64,000 bases of DNA, taken from positions 4,154,001-4,218,000 of the forward strand of contig NZ_CP072600.1 of NCBI RefSeq assembly GCF_019891175.1, written 5' to 3'. Numbering within the stretch: position 1 is the first letter of the stretch; each line of letters starts with the position of its first letter. Below are positions 14,936 to 24,763 of the stretch, piece after piece. The translations under genes were made by a program, and so were the position numbers. This stretch comes from Leptothermofonsia sichuanensis E412 (lineage in GTDB: Bacteria; Cyanobacteriota; Cyanobacteriia; Leptolyngbyales; Leptolyngbyaceae). The notes beneath the pieces are model-generated. The model did no database searches. It was not told the DNA's origin and saw only the letters and a list, made by a program, of their open reading frames with translations.

Positions 14936-15715
14936 GTGAGTAACTGTTTGAAAGTTGGCCATCGTCTATTGAATGGTGACCAGATTATTTCTGCTTTAGT
15001 GCAATACAAGCTTCTAGAGTCACTGGTAGGACAACTCCTGCTGGATGAAGCGATTAAAGAAGTAACCTTAACTAAACAGGAGGTATTTCATATCCTGGCT
15101 GGAGTCAGGGATGTTCCCTTGCCAGATGATTTTGAAGGCTTTGTTGCCCAGTGGTGCCAGTACAAACAAGTCACTCCAGAATATTTCAATCAAGTCGTTT
15201 TGCGAGAGCTACGAGTGGAGAAATTCAAACAACTCTATTTTGCAAATCAGGTTGAATCAGAGTTTTTACGCATTAAATCAGATCTGGATCAGGTTGAGTA
15301 TTCGCTGATTCAACTGCATGATCTGCCACTGGCACAGGAGTTATATTTTCAACTTCGAGATGATGGGGCAGATTTTGCCCAACTGGCACGACAGTATTCA
15401 TCAGGTAGTGAGCGGGAAGTGGGAGGACGAATGGGGCCGGTTTCTCTGTCATCGCTACCGGATGAAATCGCGACATTATTTTGTAGCGCACAGGTTGGTG
15501 CCCTTTATGGTCCAGTACCGATCGCCGATATCTTCTGGATAGTGCGCCTGGAGCAGTTTACCAGTGCCCGGTTGACTGAGGCAACTCGTGCCAATCTGAT
15601 TCATCGCATGTATCACCAGTGGTTACAAACTCAGGTCAGAAAAGTGCTGAATACACCGGGAATGATTGCAGTACAGCCGGAGGAGGAATGTGGAGGGAAA
15701 GATGATGCATTTTGA
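14936..15715 (+). CDS. PpiC-type peptidylprolyl isomerase of a type I secretion locus
   Basis: A 259-residue parvulin-like protein. An N-terminal helical region resembling SurA/PrsA chaperone segments (residues 1-120) is followed by a rotamase domain: AQELYFQLRDDGADFAQLARQYSSG and GGRMGPVSLSSLPDEIATLF (about 140-185). There is no signal peptide, so it probably acts in the cytoplasm or at the membrane. The start is a GTG at 14936. The gene overlaps the exporter gene by 11 bases, which implies translational coupling and a role as dedicated foldase or holdase for the exported RTX protein. That role is inferred from context. Confidence 0.82.
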   Translation: MSNCLKVGHRLLNGDQIISALVQYKLLESLVGQLLLDEAIKEVTLTKQEVFHILAGVRDVPLPDDFEGFVAQWCQYKQVTPEYFNQVVLRELRVEKFKQLYFANQVESEFLRIKSDLDQVEYSLIQLHDLPLAQELYFQLRDDGADFAQLARQYSSGSEREVGGRMGPVSLSSLPDEIATLFCSAQVGALYGPVPIADIFWIVRLEQFTSARLTEATRANLIHRMYHQWLQTQVRKVLNTPGMIAVQPEEECGGKDDAF

Positions 15716-18700
15716 TACTCCTATGCATTCGTTTCTAACCGATTTTTTCGCTGCCTGGCCCTTCAATGCGCTGCCAGTTAATTTACGAGAGCGGGTTGCA
15801 TCCCAGTTGCGATTGTGTTGCTTCCAACCGGGTGAGCTAATTTATCACCCCAGGGAGTTACCTTCAGCCGTTCACTGCATTGTCCAGGAGCGCGTTCGAA
15901 TTCTGGGTCCAACGTCGTTTCAAAGCCCGACCTTAGCTGTGGTGGGTAAGGGGGCTGTGGTAGGGTGGGATAGCCTGATTCGGCGAGTGACCGCAGGGTC
16001 GGTCCGGGCGGCGATGGGTGCTTCAGGACGTGCCGCAAAGGAAGATGGGGATGTGTTGACCCTGGCATTACCAGCGGACGAGTTTGAGGCGATCGCCCTG
16101 GAGCATCTGTTGCCGGTCCTGACTGAGCGGGTGGGGGTGCTGGAGGTGTTTGACACGCTGTTCCAGTGCCTGTCGAATATGCCCGGTTGTCCACCGGATC
16201 TGAATTTGAAGGAGATTGCTCACTATATTGACCAGGAGCAACTGGCCGTCGTCAAACACTGGCATGGTGGGGAACCGGAGGAGTTAGAACTATCACCGGA
16301 TTACATCTGGCTGGTCAGTGGTGGAGAGTTTCTCAATTTGCCGATTGGGACACCGATTAAACGGGTCAACCAGTTGGCACAGTCCCGCCCTTCCCGGTTT
16401 CCAGTTCGCCTGCTGGGAATTGACCGTTCCTGTATGGCATCGACGCTGCTAAGCCATACCCTTCCCGGTTCGGTAGAACATCCTGGCGAACAACTTGCCG
16501 TTGCAGAACCCTTTGATCCGGAGTCTCCGGTCAGGTTCTTTGCCCCGCCCGAATCTCCCCCTGCTAACCCTGCCTATCCCATCTGGCTGGCGCTTTCCCC
16601 TGACCCAATTGAAGACGTGGTGGCGTGTTTTGGTATGGTCTGCGATCGCCTCCAGGTTCCCTTCCGTCCTGATTCACTCCGGCGATCGCTGAAGCAGCCC
16701 TCAGCCAGAACCATTGAACCATTGGATCTATATGTTCGCATTGCCCAGGCAATTGGCTTAAGTGCTCTAGTAGTACGTTATACACCTACCCCAGGTGGCA
16801 TTAACCGACTGGCGACTCCAGCATTGATCCAGTGCGGTGATGTTTTTACTGTCCTGCATGATGTAACTCCAACTAAGGTTGTGCTGGGGTCCCCCCGCAC
16901 TGGTCTGTTGCATCTGGATCCGACTGATCTGGCAGAACGGCTGCACCATGCTTCCAGTGCTCCTGAACTGGCATCGTGTCCAGCGATCGTGCTGGAGCGG
17001 CTACCAACCACCCCCAAGAAGCGGTTCGGTTTCCACTGGTTTTTGCCAATGGTACTGAAGCAGCGGGGCATTTTAATCCAGGTGCTGTTGGCTTCAATGG
17101 TGATTCAACTATTGGGGCTGGCCAATCCCTTACTAGTTCAGCAGGTTATTGATAATGTCATTGTCAGTGCCAATGCCAGCGCTATGACAGTGTTTGGGGT
17201 CTTGATGATTTTGTTTGCCCTGCTGGAAGGTGCTCTCACTATTCTGCGAACCTATTTATTGATCAGCACCACCAACCGGATCGATCTGCATCTGGGAGTT
17301 GAAATTGTCCGGCATTTACTCCATTTACCGCTGAACTTTTTTGAGAAACGTCCAGTGGGAGAACTGTCGTCACGCCTGCTGGAACTGGAAAATATTCGCC
17401 AGTTTATGACCGATACAGCCATTACGACGGTGATGGATGTGGCATTTTCTCTCTTTTATATCGGGGTGATGTTTCTCTATAGCGTTCGCTTAACCAGTTG
17501 TGTGCTGCTGACAGTTCCAATTGTGATTGTTTCCATGCTGGTGATGTCCAGTATTCAGCAAAAGCTAATTCGCGTCAAAGCCGAGCAGGGAGCAAAGGTG
17601 CAGTCCTATCTGGTGGAGGTACTGGGCGGCATTTCTTCCGTTAAGTCTCAGCATATGGAATCCCTGGTAGAAGCAACCTGGCGCGATCGCTATGTGCAAT
17701 ACCTCACCAGCGGTTTCACCACTTCAACCGTCAACACCATCTTCTATTCCTACAGTCAGTTTCTGAACACTATCAGCAGTTTGTTAGTTCTGTGGATTGG
17801 GGCAGACCTGGTGTTGCAAGGGGACCTCACCCTGGGCGGGCTGATTGCCTTTCGGATCTTAACGGGCTATGTAACAGGTCCTCTGTTGCGGCTGGCGCGG
17901 CTGTGGCAACGGTTTCAGGAAACTTCCCTGTCGATGGAACTACTGGCAGATATTGCCGATTCCCCTGCTGAAGAAGAAATTTCCACTGAGAAGGTGAAGT
18001 TGCAAATGCCTGTAATTGCAGGTCATGTGCAGTATCACAGCATCAGCTTTGGCTTTAAGCCTGGACAACTTCAACTTACCAATGTAGATCTGGACATTGC
18101 TCCCGGTACCTTTGTCGGCATCGTTGGCCAGAGCGGTTCCGGCAAAAGTACTCTGATGAAGCTACTCCCCCGCCTTTATGTGCCCCAGACAGGGAGCATT
18201 ACCATTGATGGTTACGACATCAGCAAAGTAGATTTAAATTCCCTGCGATCGCAGGTTGGCATTGTATCCCAGGATGCAGTTCTGTTCCAGGGAACCATCC
18301 GAGATAACATTTCCCTGTTTGAGAATCTGCCCGACGAAGAAATCATCGCCGCTGCCCAGATTGCTGAAGCGCACGATTTCATCATGCAGCTACCCGATGG
18401 TTACAATACCCAGGTTGGAGAGCGGGGGAGTAACCTCTCCGGTGGACAACGCCAACGAATTGCGATCGCCCGCGTCGTGATTCGCAACCCCCGTCTGCTC
18501 ATTTTTGACGAAGCCACCAGTGCCCTCGACTACGAAACTGAACGCAAAGTCTGCACCAACCTGATGCAACGATTTCACGATCGCACCTGCTTTTTCATCA
18601 CCCACCGTCTCAATACTATTGCCCGCGCCGACTGGATTCTGTTTATGCAATCCGGCATCATCGTCGAGCAAGGAACCCACCCAGACCTGATGACACGCCG

Positions 18701-18746
18701 CCAGCTTTACTACTGCCTGTACTCCCAGCAGTCAAGAGAAGCATGA
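15705..18746 (+). CDS. Type I secretion ABC exporter with cNMP-binding-like N-terminus (HlyB-like)
   Basis: Inner-membrane transporter-ATPase of about 1013 residues from the ATG at 15705, which has GAGGG 7 bases upstream. An N-terminal Crp/cNMP-binding-like fold (LRLCCFQPGELIYHPRELPS) covers about residues 20-140. A degenerate C39-peptidase-like domain lies near 300-430 without the Q-x4-(D/E)CG motif, so it should not cleave leader peptides. Six membrane segments span about 440-710. The ATPase has Walker A GQSGSGKST, signature LSGGQRQR and Walker B LLIFDEATSALD. The domain order matches the Synechocystis HlyB-like exporter. HlyD follows; an outer-membrane TolC partner is not in the window. 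Confidence 0.92.
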   Translation: MHFDTPMHSFLTDFFAAWPFNALPVNLRERVASQLRLCCFQPGELIYHPRELPSAVHCIVQERVRILGPTSFQSPTLAVVGKGAVVGWDSLIRRVTAGSVRAAMGASGRAAKEDGDVLTLALPADEFEAIALEHLLPVLTERVGVLEVFDTLFQCLSNMPGCPPDLNLKEIAHYIDQEQLAVVKHWHGGEPEELELSPDYIWLVSGGEFLNLPIGTPIKRVNQLAQSRPSRFPVRLLGIDRSCMASTLLSHTLPGSVEHPGEQLAVAEPFDPESPVRFFAPPESPPANPAYPIWLALSPDPIEDVVACFGMVCDRLQVPFRPDSLRRSLKQPSARTIEPLDLYVRIAQAIGLSALVVRYTPTPGGINRLATPALIQCGDVFTVLHDVTPTKVVLGSPRTGLLHLDPTDLAERLHHASSAPELASCPAIVLERLPTTPKKRFGFHWFLPMVLKQRGILIQVLLASMVIQLLGLANPLLVQQVIDNVIVSANASAMTVFGVLMILFALLEGALTILRTYLLISTTNRIDLHLGVEIVRHLLHLPLNFFEKRPVGELSSRLLELENIRQFMTDTAITTVMDVAFSLFYIGVMFLYSVRLTSCVLLTVPIVIVSMLVMSSIQQKLIRVKAEQGAKVQSYLVEVLGGISSVKSQHMESLVEATWRDRYVQYLTSGFTTSTVNTIFYSYSQFLNTISSLLVLWIGADLVLQGDLTLGGLIAFRILTGYVTGPLLRLARLWQRFQETSLSMELLADIADSPAEEEISTEKVKLQMPVIAGHVQYHSISFGFKPGQLQLTNVDLDIAPGTFVGIVGQSGSGKSTLMKLLPRLYVPQTGSITIDGYDISKVDLNSLRSQVGIVSQDAVLFQGTIRDNISLFENLPDEEIIAAAQIAEAHDFIMQLPDGYNTQVGERGSNLSGGQRQRIAIARVVIRNPRLLIFDEATSALDYETERKVCTNLMQRFHDRTCFFITHRLNTIARADWILFMQSGIIVEQGTHPDLMTRRQLYYCLYSQQSREA

Positions 18747-18980
18747 GGACGAGTTGTTAGTTGTCAGTTGCTAGTTGTCAGTTGTTAGTTGTCAGTTACT
18801 GATCCTTGCTCATCAGTGATTAATTATCCAAACTCCTGACTCTCTACTTCAACTTTCAACTTTCAACTCTTTTCCCCTCACTAAAAACAGCAGCCAACAA
18901 CCCTCTTCACTTCTCACTTCTCACTCCTCACTCCTCACTCCTCACTCCTCACTCCTCACCCCTCACTCCTCACTAAAACT
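18747..18980. repeat. Low-complexity repeats between exporter and HlyD genes
   Basis: GTTAGTTGTCA-type units (about 18752-18797) are followed by a run of CTCACTC/CTCACTT units (18908-18975) that ends three bases before the HlyD ATG. The C/T-rich run occupies the place where a ribosome-binding site would lie, so the start of hlyD has no clear Shine-Dalgarno sequence. Confidence 0.8.
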
Positions 18981-18983
18981 CCT

Positions 18984-20459
18984 ATGAAACCCCATCACTT
19001 TCTACTATCACCCCTGAGAGCACTGCGATCGCGCTATCGCCGCATGTTAGATCAGGTCGAAGTTGATCTGGAAACGAAGTCAATTGGTTTACCTTCAGCC
19101 GCTGGCTGGACAAAACGAATGACTCAGATCATTCTGATTGGAATTACTGCTAGCGTTGGCTGGTCAGTCCTGGCGCGGGTAGATGTGGTGATTAATGCCA
19201 GTGGCAAGCTAGAGCCACTGTCTCAGTCTCAGGTGATTCAGTCCAGGGTAGGCGGAACGGTGACGGCTGTACTGGTGCGGGAGGGAGACGTGGTGAAACA
19301 GGGACAACTCCTGATGCAACTGGACAAAACCGCTCTCTATAACCAGATGCAAGCCCTGCTGGTACAGCGAGAGCAGTTGGTGAATGAAACTGCCGTGTTA
19401 CGGATGGCTCACCAGGGTAAGCCAATGGAGGCTCTACATAAAAGCAAAGCAAAAATTCCACCTGAACTGATGAATCGAGTGCAAACCCGGTTACTATTAG
19501 TCGCTCAAATTACGGGAGATCCCAGCCATTTGTCACCAGAACAACGGCAGCGGTTTGAACTATTTCAACGGCAATTGCAAGATCTGCGATCGCTATCCCG
19601 CTTACAGGAAACAAACATCCAGTCCCAAATTGCGGAAGCAGAAGCCCAACTTGCCCAGACTGGATTCCAACTACAAACGGAACAGGAACTTTTAGGACGG
19701 CTAACCCCCTTAGCTGAACAGGGAGCCATCTCCCGTGTTAACTTGCTTCAACGCCGGGTAAGTGTGAGTGAACTGCAAAAACAGATGATTCAAAACAGTT
19801 TGCAGAAGCATCAGCTACAGGTAAACCAGTTACGGACAAAAGTGGAGGAAGGAAAGTTACTTAATGAAACCCAACAGGACTTGCAACGCCGATTGGCAGA
19901 ACTGGATACTGAATTTGATGCCACAATCAAACAAAACCAGCGGCAGCTGGTTTTGGTGGCTTCTCAACTGAATCAAGTCAAACTGGATTTAAAAAATCAG
20001 GACTTAAAGGCTCCTGTGGATGGAGTGGTATTTAACCTGGGACCCAAACTTCCTGGTGTAGTCGCCCAGGCTGGACAAACCCTGCTGCAAATTGTTCCTG
20101 ACGAGTCTCTGACAGCACGAGTTCAGGTTGCCAATGCAGATATTGCCAATATTCGAGTTGGTATGCCTGTAGATGTCCGGATTGATGCTTATCCATTTAC
20201 CGAATATGGCTCGATTAAAGGGGTTGTTTCTAAAGTAGGCAGTGAGGCCGTCAAAATCAGCGAAACAACCCCTGGACCTACTGTTTTTCCAGTGGAAGTC
20301 CGCCTCGATCGCCAGTTTTTAGACCGTAAATCTGAGCGATTTTCCATCACGCCTGGCATGAGTGTAGTTGCCATGATTAAAGTACGTCAGCGTGCCCCCA
20401 TCAGCTATGTAACTGAAGAAATTACCAAAGCCTTTGATGGTATTAAATCAGTTCGTTAA
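18984..20459 (+). CDS. HlyD-family periplasmic adaptor of the type I secretion system
   Basis: Membrane fusion protein of 491 residues linking the ABC exporter to an outer-membrane channel. One membrane segment lies near residues 48-66 (MTQIILIGITASVGWSVLA). The first half of the lipoyl domain follows (GGTVTAVLVREGDVVKQGQ). A long coiled coil runs over about 110-340, rich in Gln and Leu. The second lipoyl half is LKAPVDGVVFNLGP, and a beta-barrel region with ADIANIRVGMPVDVRIDAYPF completes the fold. It lies in the same direction as the PpiC and exporter genes, separated only by the repeat tract. Confidence 0.92.
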   Translation: MKPHHFLLSPLRALRSRYRRMLDQVEVDLETKSIGLPSAAGWTKRMTQIILIGITASVGWSVLARVDVVINASGKLEPLSQSQVIQSRVGGTVTAVLVREGDVVKQGQLLMQLDKTALYNQMQALLVQREQLVNETAVLRMAHQGKPMEALHKSKAKIPPELMNRVQTRLLLVAQITGDPSHLSPEQRQRFELFQRQLQDLRSLSRLQETNIQSQIAEAEAQLAQTGFQLQTEQELLGRLTPLAEQGAISRVNLLQRRVSVSELQKQMIQNSLQKHQLQVNQLRTKVEEGKLLNETQQDLQRRLAELDTEFDATIKQNQRQLVLVASQLNQVKLDLKNQDLKAPVDGVVFNLGPKLPGVVAQAGQTLLQIVPDESLTARVQVANADIANIRVGMPVDVRIDAYPFTEYGSIKGVVSKVGSEAVKISETTPGPTVFPVEVRLDRQFLDRKSERFSITPGMSVVAMIKVRQRAPISYVTEEITKAFDGIKSVR

Positions 20460-20656: not shown

Positions 20657-23600
20657 TTAATTGCAAATACGGCGATCGCGCTCCTCCAGATTTGGATTAG
20701 TCTGCACATAGTCACGCACCCAGTCACAACCCTTTTTCACAAGGGCTTGCAAATCCAGATTCCAAAGGATGACCCCTTTATCGAAGCTGCCAACTGCTAC
20801 AGCTTTGCTATCAGGACTAAGGGCAACAATTCCCAACACCGTATTAGGACTCTGAAAGGATGCAAGCTCTGTACCATCTCGATTCCAAAGCTTAACAGTG
20901 CCATCCTTACCTCCACTGGAAGCAACAACAGTGCCATCGTGATTGAAACTTACACTAAACACTCCACGAGTATGTCCCTGAAGGGTTTTGAGTAATTCAC
21001 CATCTCGACTCCACAATTTAATGGTTGTGTCGTTACTGGCAGAAGCGATTATTTGACCATCTGGACTGAAACGGACACCGTAAACCTGATCACTATGCCC
21101 TTTCAAGGTTTTCAATAATGTTCCATTTCGGTTCCAAAGTTTGATGGTTCTATCTAAACTGGCGGATGCGATCGTTTGACCATCAGGGCTGAAGCTAACG
21201 CTGTAAATTTGATCCGTGTGTCCTGCTAAGGTTCTTAATAAAGCACCATTGCGGTTCCAGAGCCTGATGGTCTTATCTGCGCTAGCAGAAGCAATCGTCT
21301 GGCTATCTGGACTGAAGGTGACTTCAAAAACATCATCTGTATGACCTTTCAGGGTTTTAAGCAAGCCCCCATCACGACTCCAGAGACTGATAGCTCTACC
21401 ATTATTTGTGTTGCTAGCGACAAGTACTTGACCATCTGGACTAAAACTAACCGATCCTCGTAATCCCTGGTATCTAAACAGTCTTTTTATCAGCTTACCT
21501 TCCCGATTCCACAAATAAATAGCACCGTCCTCATAATCAACCGCCGCAATCATTTCACCATCTGGACTAAAACTGATTCCAGGAGAGCTACCACTGGAGG
21601 TTCGCATTGTAGGTAACTCACTGTTGTTCAATTTCCACAGGCGCACGGAGTTGTCGAACCCAGCGGATGCAAGCTCCTGACCATCGGGACTGAAGCTGAC
21701 ACTGTATACCAGACCGCTATGCCCCAGAAGGGTTTTGGCAAGAGAACCATCTAAATTCCACAACTTGACTGTTCCATCATAATTTGCTGAGGCAATGGTT
21801 TTGCCATTGTGGTTGAATGCCAGACTCATGACAGCATCTGAGCCTGAGGATGGGGATCGGAATCTGGCGCGTTTTAGAGAAAGAACGAAGTCCTCCTCAC
21901 CTGAACGGGCAATTTTTACAGAAACCTTTGTTCCAACCACACCTCGAAGTTGTTTAATGGATGAACCTTGAGTCATTTGATTAGTAGCGATGCCATTGAT
22001 CGCAATGATGCGATCGTCCACTTTCAGCCCTGCTTCCATTGCTGGGGCATTCTGAAACACTTCCACAATCTTCAAGCTTTTGGTTTCTCCATCCCAATCA
22101 GTGCGAACTCCAATTCCTGAAAATTCTTCGTAAGTTGGGGTTGCAACCTCCATTGTGGTTAAAAGCTGCCCTGAACGATTCCAGACTCGAATAGTACCGT
22201 CCTGAGAGCCAGTTGCAATTTTGCTCCCATCTGGACTGAACTTAACATCGTTGATGCCAGATGGATGCTTGAGAGTTTGAATTAAAGCACCATCCTGGCT
22301 CCAAAGTTTTACCGTATTAATATCTCGTTCAGAAGTTGCCAGTATTTGCCCGTCTGGGCTAAAAGCCACACTTGTGAGATAGTTCGTGAAACCTTGAATC
22401 GTGTTGAGTAAATTACCTTTCAAATCCCAAATCGTTACTGTTTTATTATCATTTCCAGTTGCAATCTGCTTGCCATCTGGACTGAATGCAACAGCATTGA
22501 TCCCAGAGCTATTTTTCAGTGTGTGTAAAAGTTCTCCTTTCTGGTTCCAAAGTTTACAAGTTTTATCTGAGCTAACAGTCGCAAGAATGTCACCCTTAGG
22601 GTTAAAGGTAAGGCTATCGACAAAATTGGTATGTCCTGCCAAACGTTTAACCAGCCTACCATTGCGTTCCCATAGAATAGCCGTGTAATCCTGGCTCACA
22701 GAAGCAATCAATTTTCCATCAGGACTAAATGCTACACCTTGTAAACGACTGGTGTGTCCTTCTAAACGATTGCGCTCTTGCACACCATAGACCGCTTGCT
22801 GAAGTGCAACAATAGCCTTAATACGAATGCCATTATCCTGCCAAGTCGCATGGTTAACTAATTGTCCTGCTTTCAAAGCTTGCATGAGTGCATCCAGCCT
22901 TTTGTTCAAGCTAAACAGAGCTTCTGAAGATGCAGCCAGAGCGATTACCTCACTCTTTTCTGAAAACATTCGGCGTTGTTCAGCCTGTTGATATTGACTA
23001 AATGCAAGGAAAGCCGAGCCGATCGCAACGACAGAAACCGTTGCAACGGCACCTAACCACAGTCGTTGCCGTTTAATTTGAATCCGCTGTTGTTGAATTT
23101 CGGCTTCCTGGCGATCGCTCTCTGCCTGGCGGCTCTCATTGATGTAATCCCGCTGGATTTGAGTCGATCTCGGTTCCTTCTCAGCATTCTGCGTTAGCCA
23201 ATGAATTACGGCTTCCAACTCACTCCCGCGTAGCAACAAGTCGGGATTGCGATTCTTATTTTCCCACTCGATCGCCCTCACCAGAATCCGGGTATGCTGC
23301 TTCACATGATCGAGGTCCGTGTCGATGGCTTCCAGTAATTGTTGAAAAGTGAGATCGAAATCATCGCGTTCCCGGAAAAACAGCCAGTTGTGCTTTGCCA
23401 GAGCAGGATGGACCAGATTCATCTCCAGATCATCCCGTCGCACCACCGGAATTAACCGTTTGTGGTACTGAACAGCGTGGTCAATCTCCTGATTGCACAC
23501 TTTCGAGGCAATGGAATCCGGGCTGATTACAAAAATAAACGTATTCGCGGCTTCAATTCCCCGTTCAATTTCCTGCCACCAATCGGCGGTGAGGGGAATG

Positions 23601-23707
23601 TCCTGCCAATCAACCCAGGCTTCACGGCTATGCTCTACCAGTGCCCCATGTAGGGCTTTCACAAAGTCCTTATCTTTACGCGAGTAGGAGATGAAAACAT
23701 CAGTCAT
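20657..23707 (-). CDS. TIR domain - transmembrane - WD40 protein with inserted PDZ domain
   Basis: A 1016-residue multidomain protein. Residues 1-140 are a TIR domain (MTDVFISYSRKDKDFVK, then SPDSIASKVCNQEIDHA, where Glu74 sits at the position of the NADase glutamate). A coiled coil and a single membrane segment follow (about 225-250, WLGAVATVSVVAIGSAFLAF). Fourteen WD40 repeats come next, enough for two seven-bladed propellers. After the fifth repeat, residues about 515-615 form a PDZ domain (GIGVRTDW, VFQNAPAMEAGLKVDDRIIA, IKQLRGVVGTKVSVKI). The protein ends with a Cys-containing tail (CDWVRDYVQTNP) typical of cyanobacterial WD40 signalling proteins. TIR-WD40 proteins are known in cyanobacteria. 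A conflict or defence role is inference, supported only by the neighbouring Rpn-type nuclease. Confidence 0.9.
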   Translation of the reverse strand: MTDVFISYSRKDKDFVKALHGALVEHSREAWVDWQDIPLTADWWQEIERGIEAANTFIFVISPDSIASKVCNQEIDHAVQYHKRLIPVVRRDDLEMNLVHPALAKHNWLFFRERDDFDLTFQQLLEAIDTDLDHVKQHTRILVRAIEWENKNRNPDLLLRGSELEAVIHWLTQNAEKEPRSTQIQRDYINESRQAESDRQEAEIQQQRIQIKRQRLWLGAVATVSVVAIGSAFLAFSQYQQAEQRRMFSEKSEVIALAASSEALFSLNKRLDALMQALKAGQLVNHATWQDNGIRIKAIVALQQAVYGVQERNRLEGHTSRLQGVAFSPDGKLIASVSQDYTAILWERNGRLVKRLAGHTNFVDSLTFNPKGDILATVSSDKTCKLWNQKGELLHTLKNSSGINAVAFSPDGKQIATGNDNKTVTIWDLKGNLLNTIQGFTNYLTSVAFSPDGQILATSERDINTVKLWSQDGALIQTLKHPSGINDVKFSPDGSKIATGSQDGTIRVWNRSGQLLTTMEVATPTYEEFSGIGVRTDWDGETKSLKIVEVFQNAPAMEAGLKVDDRIIAINGIATNQMTQGSSIKQLRGVVGTKVSVKIARSGEEDFVLSLKRARFRSPSSGSDAVMSLAFNHNGKTIASANYDGTVKLWNLDGSLAKTLLGHSGLVYSVSFSPDGQELASAGFDNSVRLWKLNNSELPTMRTSSGSSPGISFSPDGEMIAAVDYEDGAIYLWNREGKLIKRLFRYQGLRGSVSFSPDGQVLVASNTNNGRAISLWSRDGGLLKTLKGHTDDVFEVTFSPDSQTIASASADKTIRLWNRNGALLRTLAGHTDQIYSVSFSPDGQTIASASLDRTIKLWNRNGTLLKTLKGHSDQVYGVRFSPDGQIIASASNDTTIKLWSRDGELLKTLQGHTRGVFSVSFNHDGTVVASSGGKDGTVKLWNRDGTELASFQSPNTVLGIVALSPDSKAVAVGSFDKGVILWNLDLQALVKKGCDWVRDYVQTNPNLEERDRRICN

Positions 23708-23872
23708 GGCGGGCTGCTGGCAGGAGAATATTCTCTATTTCAGCCTATCAGGTCTGTCAGCAGACGAAACAACCTGTTGGGGTTAGTGAATAGATTTGGT
23801 TAATCCGACGCGATCGCATCATATACGTTCAGGCGTACTAAAATGATGCCACTGCCGTCTTTTCGACCCATG

Positions 23873-24763
23873 TCCTTTGACAATCTCTGTAAGCTGTTGT
23901 CAGAAAAATACCCGGATCGCTTTGTGAACTGGCTGTTAGGAGAAACCCCTCAAACGGTGACAGTTCTGAAGACTGAACTGAGCATTGAACCGATTCGAGC
24001 TGATTCCGTTACCTTTTTGCAAACCGACCAGCGGATTGTTCATCTGGAATTTCAAACCCGAATTGAGTCCAATCCCCCCCTGCCCCTCCGGATGCTGGAT
24101 TACTGGGTACGACTACACCGGCTTTACAGGTTACCCGTTACCCAGGTTGTGATTCTGCTGTTGCCGCCAGCCAATGCAACCGAAATTGAAACGGCCTTTA
24201 GCCTGGAATCAACCCGCCATGCATATCAGGTCATCAGGTTATGGGAGCAAGATCCTGCCATCTTTTTGCATGACCCCGCCTTACTCCCCTTTGCTTCCCT
24301 GGCAGCCACCTCCGATCCTGCCCAGCTACTCCATCAGGTCGCCCAGGTGATCCGTGGAATACAATCCACTCAACAACGGCAGGAAGTTTCGGGCTATGCT
24401 CAACTACTGGCAGGGTTAAAATTTAGTCAGCCGTTGATTCGACAAGCTTTTATGGAGGGGGTTATGCGAGAGTCGGTCATCTATCAAGAAATTTTTCAGG
24501 AAGGCAGACAGGAGGGCAGACAGGAGGGCAGACAGGAAGGCAGACAGGAAGGCAGACAGGAAGGCAGACAGGAAGGCAGGCGAGAAGAAGGTTTGGCCCT
24601 GGTCCTGCTGTTGCTGGAACAGCGGGTTGGGCAGTTGCCGGATGAGTTGCGCGATCGCCTCTCCACCCTCGACTTAGCCCAACTGGAAGCCCTGGCAGTG
24701 GCGTTACTCAATTTCTCGCAGCTTTCAGATCTGCTGGACTGGTTCAAGCAAAAACACCTGTAA
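23873..24763 (+). CDS. Rpn-family recombination-promoting nuclease/putative transposase with DUF4351-like tail
   Basis: A protein of about 296 residues of the PD-(D/E)XK Rpn/YhgA-like group. The N-terminus MSFDNLCKLLSEKYPDRFVNWLLGE and the core segment ADSVTFLQTDQRIVHLEFQTRI contain the expected acidic residues of the nuclease fold (D in ADSVTF, E and Q in HLEFQ). The C-terminal part after residue about 230 is a leucine-rich helical domain like DUF4351. Between them lies a Gly-Arg-Gln-Glu tandem repeat encoded by seven 12-base units. An alternative ATG at 23843 adds ten residues; neither start has a clear ribosome-binding site. Such genes are numerous and variable in cyanobacteria. Confidence 0.8.
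   Translation, partial: SFDNLCKLLSEKYPDRFVNWLLGETPQTVTVLKTELSIEPIRADSVTFLQTDQRIVHLEFQTRIESNPPLPLRMLDYWVRLHRLYRLPVTQVVILLLPPANATEIETAFSLESTRHAYQVIRLWEQDPAIFLHDPALLPFASLAATSDPAQLLHQVAQVIRGIQSTQQRQEVSGYAQLLAGLKFSQPLIRQAFMEGVMRESVIYQEIFQEGRQEGRQEGRQEGRQEGRQEGRQEGRREEGLALVLLLLEQRVGQLPDELRDRLSTLDLAQLEALAVALLNFSQLSDLLDWFKQKHL
24503..24586 (+). repeat. 12-bp in-frame tandem repeat coding GRQE
   Basis: Seven units of GGCAGACAGGAR (the last degenerate) lie in frame within the Rpn-family gene. Copy-number change in steps of 12 bases would add or remove GRQE without shifting the frame. Confidence 0.9.

What the first reader, a model, noticed from the sequence alone, without database searches (positions are those of the whole stretch)
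20657..23707. PDZ domain inserted into a WD40 propeller of a TIR-transmembrane protein
Counting gives 14 WD40 repeats (two propellers). A PDZ-like segment of about 100 residues sits between repeats 5 and 6, inside the first propeller. TIR-WD40 proteins are known, but I do not recall one with an internal PDZ domain. PDZ domains bind C-terminal peptides, so the protein could couple peptide sensing to a TIR effector whose glutamate (Glu74) is present. A membrane segment precedes the propellers.
Basis: partly seen in the sequence, partly recalled or inferred. Interest (0 to 1): 0.75.

Follow-up and report, generated by a model that had tools for sequence, protein, structure and literature searches.

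The report
Membrane TIR receptor with peptide-binding insert
A bacterial, probably cyanobacterial, membrane protein joins a cell-death or immune-type enzyme domain (TIR) inside the cell to a double beta-propeller that very likely lies outside the inner membrane and has a protein-tail-binding (PDZ) domain spliced between two of its blades; the same kind of splice recurs in at least three other membrane receptors, which suggests a reusable sensor for protein ends in the cell envelope.

Summary
ORF 20657-23707(-), 1016 aa, carries a TIR domain (aa 4-125), one TM helix (aa 218-236), fourteen WD40 repeats forming two seven-bladed propellers, and a PDZ domain (aa 523-618) between repeats 5 and 6. 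AlphaFold models PDZ and propellers confidently; propeller 1 still closes normally around a ~100-residue insert. The PDZ is of the type found in S41 carboxy-terminal-processing proteases (CtpB) and keeps the GIGV carboxylate-binding loop. Glu74 aligns with the catalytic Glu208 of AbTIR. New here: (1) topology. Across 31 TM-WD40 proteins, cysteine is 21 times rarer after the TM than before it, a C-terminal cysteine pair is nearly always present, and flanking charges say N-in; so TIR is probably cytosolic, propellers and PDZ extracytoplasmic. (2) Recurrence. Close TIR-TM-WD40 homologues lack the PDZ, but PDZ-in-propeller also occurs in a TPR-nSTAND and two CHAT-nSTAND proteins, each at a different blade junction, all TM-anchored. 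Most likely a receptor in which the PDZ captures exposed protein C-termini in the envelope and clustering turns on the TIR. Ligand, activation and NAD+ cleavage are untested. New variant of a known kind; no description of it was found in the papers searched.

The parts
20657..23707 (-). Whole gene, 1016 aa TIR-TM-WD40(5)-PDZ-WD40(9) protein
23333..23698 (-). TIR domain, aa 4-125
   Evidence: PF13676 TIR_2 E=2e-28; phmmer to Cat1 and AbTIR chains
23486..23488 (-). Codon of Glu74, aligned with catalytic Glu208 of AbTIR
23000..23056 (-). Transmembrane helix, aa 218-236, Kyte-Doolittle mean 2.13; 4 K/R before it, 3 after (within 15 aa)
22154..22765 (-). WD40 repeats 1-5 of propeller 1, aa 315-518
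   Evidence: AlphaFold pLDDT mostly about 90
21854..22141 (-). Inserted PDZ domain of S41/CtpB type, aa 523-618, in the loop between repeat 5 and repeat 6
22106..22117 (-). Carboxylate-binding loop Gly531-Ile532-Gly533-Val534 of the PDZ
   Evidence: alignment with S41 PDZ rows, G531 and G533 invariant; CtpB Gly113-Ile114-Gly115-Ala116 binds peptide C-termini (PMC3808539)
21602..21841 (-). WD40 repeats 6-7, aa 623-702, closing propeller 1
20735..21601 (-). WD40 repeats 8-14, propeller 2, aa 703-991
20663..20728 (-). C-terminal helical hairpin with conserved Cys994...Cys1015 pair (probable disulfide)

Best explanation
It is a single-pass inner-membrane receptor. The TIR domain lies in the cytosol; the two propellers and the PDZ lie outside the inner membrane (periplasm or equivalent). 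The PDZ, of the kind that S41 processing proteases use to hold free C-termini, catches exposed C-terminal tails of envelope proteins (damaged or mis-assembled host proteins, or phage/invader proteins). The propellers carry further ligand contacts and bring receptors together. Clustering brings the cytosolic TIR domains together, which then consume NAD+ or make a nucleotide signal and stop growth or kill the cell. Shown here by computation: domain content and order, insertion point, intact TIR glutamate and PDZ carboxylate loop, hydrophobic TM helix. Strongly inferred: topology. Inferred only: ligand class, clustering, NAD+ cleavage, biological purpose.
For: TIR with aligned Glu74. PDZ at pLDDT about 90-97 inside a propeller that still closes on 7 blades. 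PDZ nearest to CtpB (own-genome CtpB 43% identity), whose PDZ binds C-termini and switches the enzyme (PMC3808539). Topology: 31 TM-WD40 proteins have 82 Cys in 9368 residues before the TM against 9 in 21597 after it up to the last blade (Fisher p=7e-33; related sequences, so p is not exact); C-terminal Cys pair in 28 of 30; K/R higher on the N-side in 26 of 30, lower in none; WD40 proteins without TM have more blade Cys and mostly no such pair. PDZ-in-propeller recurs in L079/G400 (TPR-nSTAND1, repeats 9/10), L192 Gloeothece plasmid (CHAT-nSTAND1, 2/3) and L201/G465 (CHAT-nSTAND1, 13/14), all with TM and Cys pair. DegS is a precedent for a periplasmic PDZ sensing exposed OMP C-termini (PMC11642142).
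Against: No ligand, activity or phenotype is known. The HtrA-type Arg/Lys four residues before GIG is absent (Glu527). No partner or defence gene stands next to it. TIR-PDZ fusion was seen in this one genome only; its homologues work without the PDZ, so the PDZ is not needed for the basic function of the family. The TIR model has low confidence for want of an alignment.
Confidence: 0.5

Rival explanations
1. The PDZ is a tolerated passenger or spacer: a domain captured from a CtpB-like gene that fits in an inter-blade loop and does not bind peptides. The receptor senses through its propellers, as its PDZ-less homologues do.
For: Closest TIR-TM-WD40 homologues (64-66% identity in TIR-TM) have 14 repeats and no PDZ; inter-blade loops tolerate inserts; only one TIR case is known.
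Against: The fold is predicted intact with the carboxylate loop kept; four examples with different effectors and different junctions, always on the probable extracytoplasmic side, are more than a single accident suggests.
Confidence: 0.25
2. The PDZ binds an internal or partner tail (its own C-terminus, a neighbouring receptor or a Ctp protease) and acts as a clamp for autoinhibition or assembly, not as a sensor of foreign tails.
For: In CtpB the PDZ works as an inhibitory gate released by peptide (PMC3808539); in DegS peptide binding relieves autoinhibition (PMC11642142).
Against: No interface between PDZ and the rest could be tested; the protein's own C-terminus lies beside a probable disulfide hairpin (Cys994-Cys1015) and ends in Asn, not in a known PDZ tail.
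Confidence: 0.15
3. The hydrophobic segment is not a true membrane span, and TIR, propellers and PDZ are all cytosolic.
For: Known WD40 STAND/Apaf-1-type sensors are cytosolic; TM was predicted from hydropathy only.
Against: Near absence of Cys after the segment, the conserved Cys pair, the charge bias and the contrast with TM-less WD40 proteins.
Confidence: 0.08
4. The TIR does not cut NAD+ but acts as an assembly or adaptor domain that recruits another effector.
For: Many TIR domains are scaffolds (established knowledge); activity cannot be read from sequence alone.
Against: Glu74 is kept and the nearest solved relatives by sequence include Cat1 and the NAD+ hydrolase AbTIR.
Confidence: 0.15

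Closest known systems
PDZ-less TIR-TM-WD40 proteins of the same family (L132-L151; e.g. G410 C24, G420 C5)
   Same: TIR, TM, juxtamembrane helices, 14-16 WD40 repeats, C-terminal Cys pair; up to 66% identity over TIR-TM
   Different: No PDZ between blades; several carry extra C-terminal segments
PDZ domain of S41 carboxy-terminal processing proteases (CtpB)
   Same: Closest PDZ by profile and by solved structure; GIG carboxylate loop
   Different: No S41 protease domain here; the PDZ sits between propeller blades
nSTAND/WRAP propeller proteins of cyanobacteria (e.g. Npun_R6612; PMC9218822) and Apaf-1
   Same: Double 7-bladed propeller sensor on an immune/death-type effector chain
   Different: No PDZ described there; WRAP proteins use a STAND NTPase, and Apaf-1 is soluble and cytosolic
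DegS (HtrA family) envelope-stress sensor
   Same: Membrane-anchored periplasmic PDZ that reads exposed C-termini and starts a signal (PMC11642142)
   Different: Protease effector on the same side of the membrane; C-terminal PDZ; no propeller
Tricorn protease
   Same: Beta-propellers and a PDZ in one chain, S41 kin (PMC6411480)
   Different: PDZ lies among the protease domains, not inside a propeller; no TIR, no TM
GAP1-N2-type GTPase conflict systems
   Same: PDZ beyond a TM segment in a putative conflict-system protein (PMC7159879)
   Different: GTPase core, no WD40 propeller, no TIR in that chain

Membership tests
PDZ domain (S41/Ctp type) | Significant profile match | tested here: met
   PF00595/PDZ_6/PDZ_2 above cut-off; CtpB profile 3e-23 over aa 523-618
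PDZ domain (S41/Ctp type) | Carboxylate-binding loop Gly-hydrophobic-Gly-hydrophobic | tested here: met
   G531-I-G-V534 aligned with S41 rows; loop known from CtpB
PDZ domain (S41/Ctp type) | Binds C-terminal peptides | not testable with these tools
   Needs a binding assay
HtrA-type PDZ | Arg/Lys-XXX-Gly-hydrophobic-Gly-hydrophobic | tested here: not met
   Residue four before Gly531 is Glu527 (motif from PMC11642142)
S41 Ctp protease | S41 catalytic domain | tested here: not met
   Ctp profiles match only aa 519-618, the PDZ part
TIR domain | Significant profile match | tested here: met
   TIR_2 E=2e-28
TIR NADase | Catalytic glutamate aligned | tested here: met
   Glu74 aligned with AbTIR Glu208
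TIR NADase | NAD+ hydrolysis | not testable with these tools
   Needs an enzyme assay
WD40 double propeller | Fourteen repeats closing as 7+7 | tested here: met
Thoeris / CBASS TIR systems | ThsA, SAVED or cyclase partner gene beside the TIR gene | tested here: not met
   Neighbours are PpiC rotamase, ABC exporter, HlyD, DUF4351, inositol phosphatase and PfkB; PADLOC gives no partner, and the mad3/mad8 matches fall on the exporter's ABC domain
Extracytoplasmic receptor (TM, N-in) | TM helix with positive-inside bias and an oxidising-side cysteine pattern after it | tested here: met
   experimental topology not tested

The most novel reading that the evidence does not exclude
Cyanobacteria own a class of transmembrane immune/death receptors with extracytoplasmic WD40 propellers and cytosolic TIR, CHAT or nSTAND effectors, and a Ctp-type PDZ has repeatedly been plugged between blades as an exchangeable sensor of protein C-termini in the envelope: a bacterial analogue of Toll-like receptors that reads broken or foreign protein tails.
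Probability: 0.3. Interest if true: 0.82.

Novelty: new variant of a known kind. Interest (0 to 1): 0.62.

Why it matters
Most studied bacterial TIR, STAND and CHAT immune proteins sense inside the cell. A TIR effector wired through the membrane to an extracytoplasmic propeller with a peptide-end reader would be a Toll-like layout in bacteria, and it offers a definite ligand class (free C-termini) that can be tested with peptide arrays. The recurrence at four different blade junctions also suggests that propeller loops serve as sockets for sensor domains.

Tried and rejected
Unique one-off fusion: rejected, since PDZ-in-propeller was found in G400 (L079), Gloeothece verrucosa PCC 7822 plasmid Cy782205 (L192) and G465 (L201). 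Ancient feature of the TIR-TM-WD40 family: not supported, since the closest homologues, one in the same genus, lack it. One common origin of the inserted PDZs: not resolved; the tree of 96 columns neither shows nor rejects a single clade (AU p=0.23). Recent insertion mark: GC and GC3 of the PDZ segment (46.2, 38.5%) are like the neighbouring blades; no Rfam match and no promoter-like sites above chance. Known defence operon: nothing at this locus. Viral spread: no relative of the TIR-TM part in viral contigs by that pattern search. Peptide-pattern scan of 84,980 species genomes with the window PDZ found no relative, and with the G400 PDZ gave 18 loci; those examined sit mostly in S41-like frames of about 360-640 aa; this scan finds only near relatives. 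Rarity was not measured well: the genome searches score only 10-94 candidates per genome, and S41 PDZs crowd the lists. The Planctomycetota sample (199 genomes) gave one match, in a 474-aa frame without the WD40 flanks; the 217 genomes of G338's family were empty at a strict cut-off, which shows little. No structure match for the PDZ part alone was obtained, because propellers fill the lists.

Full report
Observation. The ORF 20657..23707 on the minus strand encodes 1016 aa. A TIR domain covers aa 4-125 (TIR_2, E=2e-28). A hydrophobic helix lies at aa 218-236. A model built from the window's own blades finds 14 WD40 repeats from aa 315 to 991 with a single long gap, aa 518-623, between repeats 5 and 6. 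That gap scores as PDZ with three Pfam models above their cut-offs, and with the NCBIfam CtpB profile at 3e-23 over aa 523-618.

Structure. AlphaFold gave confident propellers and PDZ (PDZ pLDDT about 90-97 in the full chain; similar in propeller 1 alone, overall mean 87.7). The TIR part is not usable because no relatives of it could be put in the alignment. The seven-bladed WRAP propeller 7bie aligns with model residues 318-702 over 284 of its 286 residues at 1.2 A, so propeller 1 closes as a normal 7-blade ring while skipping about 100 residues, the PDZ. Propeller 2 is aa 704-985 (278 residues, 1.2 A) (propeller 1 alone). The insert enters after the last strand of repeat 5 and leaves before the first strand of repeat 6, where most WD40 repeats carry the GH pair.

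What the PDZ is. Its best solved relatives are CtpB and related carboxyl-terminal proteases; the own-genome CtpB is 43% identical over the domain. Gly531 and Gly533 are invariant in the alignment with S41 PDZs from other phyla, giving the GIGV carboxylate loop; in B. subtilis CtpB the loop Gly113-Ile114-Gly115-Ala116 anchors the peptide C-terminus, and peptide binding switches the enzyme on (PMC3808539). The protease domain is absent. The HtrA-type basic residue before the loop is absent too (Glu527).

TIR. Glu74 aligns with the E of 'NYELDG' in AbTIR, which is chain position 78 in 7uwg and corresponds to Glu208 if that chain is SNA plus residues 134-267 (the construct is from memory).

Topology. 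In 31 TM-containing WD40 proteins (window, own-genome paralogues, relatives, and three other PDZ-bearing proteins) cysteine occurs at 8.75 per 1000 residues before the TM and 0.42 per 1000 between the TM and the last blade (82/9368 against 9/21597). Of 30 such proteins 28 have a C-terminal pair C-x(17-26)-C; K/R is higher on the N-side in 26 and lower in none. Of eight WD40 proteins scored without the TM in that set, six lack the pair, and blade Cys are much commoner. The two with the pair are a paralogue whose N-terminal part is broken by stops (L152) and one with its TM further upstream (L153). Sequences are related, so p-values overstate the evidence, but the pattern fits a cytosolic TIR and extracytoplasmic propellers plus PDZ. 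This is inference, not an experiment.

Distribution. The closest TIR-TM-WD40 homologues, one in the same genus, have 14-16 repeats and no PDZ. PDZ between WD40 blades was found in three other proteins: L079/G400, TPR-nSTAND1-TM-WD40, between repeats 9 and 10; L192, plasmid Cy782205 of Gloeothece verrucosa PCC 7822 (WP_013325788.1), CHAT-nSTAND1-TM-WD40, between repeats 2 and 3; L201/G465, CHAT-nSTAND1-TM with about 21 repeats, between repeats 13 and 14 as counted by the model. All four PDZs pass Pfam cut-offs; the CHAT call in the G465 fragment is just under its cut-off (23.7 against 24 bits). All four proteins have the TM and the Cys pair. PDZ domains also sit inside TPR arrays of a protein kinase on a Nostoc plasmid (L193) and of a trypsin-like protein (L080, L081). 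In 388 genomes of the class only the window and G400 stood clearly above the S41 background; in 136 genomes searched with a three-row profile, G465 was added. Rare is likely, but the searches are capped and biased, so this is not a frequency. A tree of the inserted PDZs does not settle whether they share one origin.

Mechanism. Best supported: a membrane receptor whose extracytoplasmic PDZ binds free C-termini and whose propellers bind or cluster, activating the cytosolic TIR. DegS is the working precedent for a periplasmic PDZ that reads exposed C-termini (PMC11642142). The claim 'it works like DegS/CtpB sensing' does not make it an HtrA or Ctp protein: both membership tests fail on defining features.

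Prior knowledge. Searches of open papers for TIR, WD40, PDZ and cyanobacteria together returned two domain surveys whose matching passages do not describe this arrangement. [quoted passage not shown] One conflict-system paper notes PDZ beyond a TM in GTPase proteins. Subscription papers, preprints and protein databases could not be searched, so novelty is bounded.

Context. Nothing nearby points to a defence operon.

Noticed in passing
G000:C1:5764288-5766654 (L003, L152): A second TIR-TM-WD40 paralogue in the same genome whose TIR part is broken by two TGA and one TAG while the WD40 part stays open.
   Followed up: no
L080 (G338) and L081 (G278): Trypsin-like proteins with a hydrophobic, probably secretory N-terminus and a PDZ inside a TPR array; the 9-mer RQGRSDFDL is shared exactly with the PDZ inside the WD40 propeller of G400.
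   Followed up: partly
L193 2226-4757 (Nostoc carneum NIES-2107 plasmid3): Protein kinase with a PDZ inside its TPR array, beyond a hydrophobic segment: the same idea with another effector and another repeat.
   Followed up: partly
window 14936-20459: PpiC-type rotamase, a 1026-aa ABC exporter with a long N-terminal region that Pfam does not name, and an HlyD protein in a row: looks like a peptide/type I export set.
   Followed up: no
window 23843-24763: DUF4351 protein with a run of EGRQ repeats, divergent from the TIR gene with about 135 bases between them.
   Followed up: no
L146 and L147 (G421, G420), L161 (own genome): Other TM-WD40 proteins have 85- to 192-residue gaps between recognised blades that do not look like PDZ; degenerate blades or other inserts.
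   Followed up: no
L132-L134, L138-L140, L192: Several TM-WD40 proteins carry an extra C-terminal segment after the Cys hairpin with a further C-x15-C pair.
   Followed up: no
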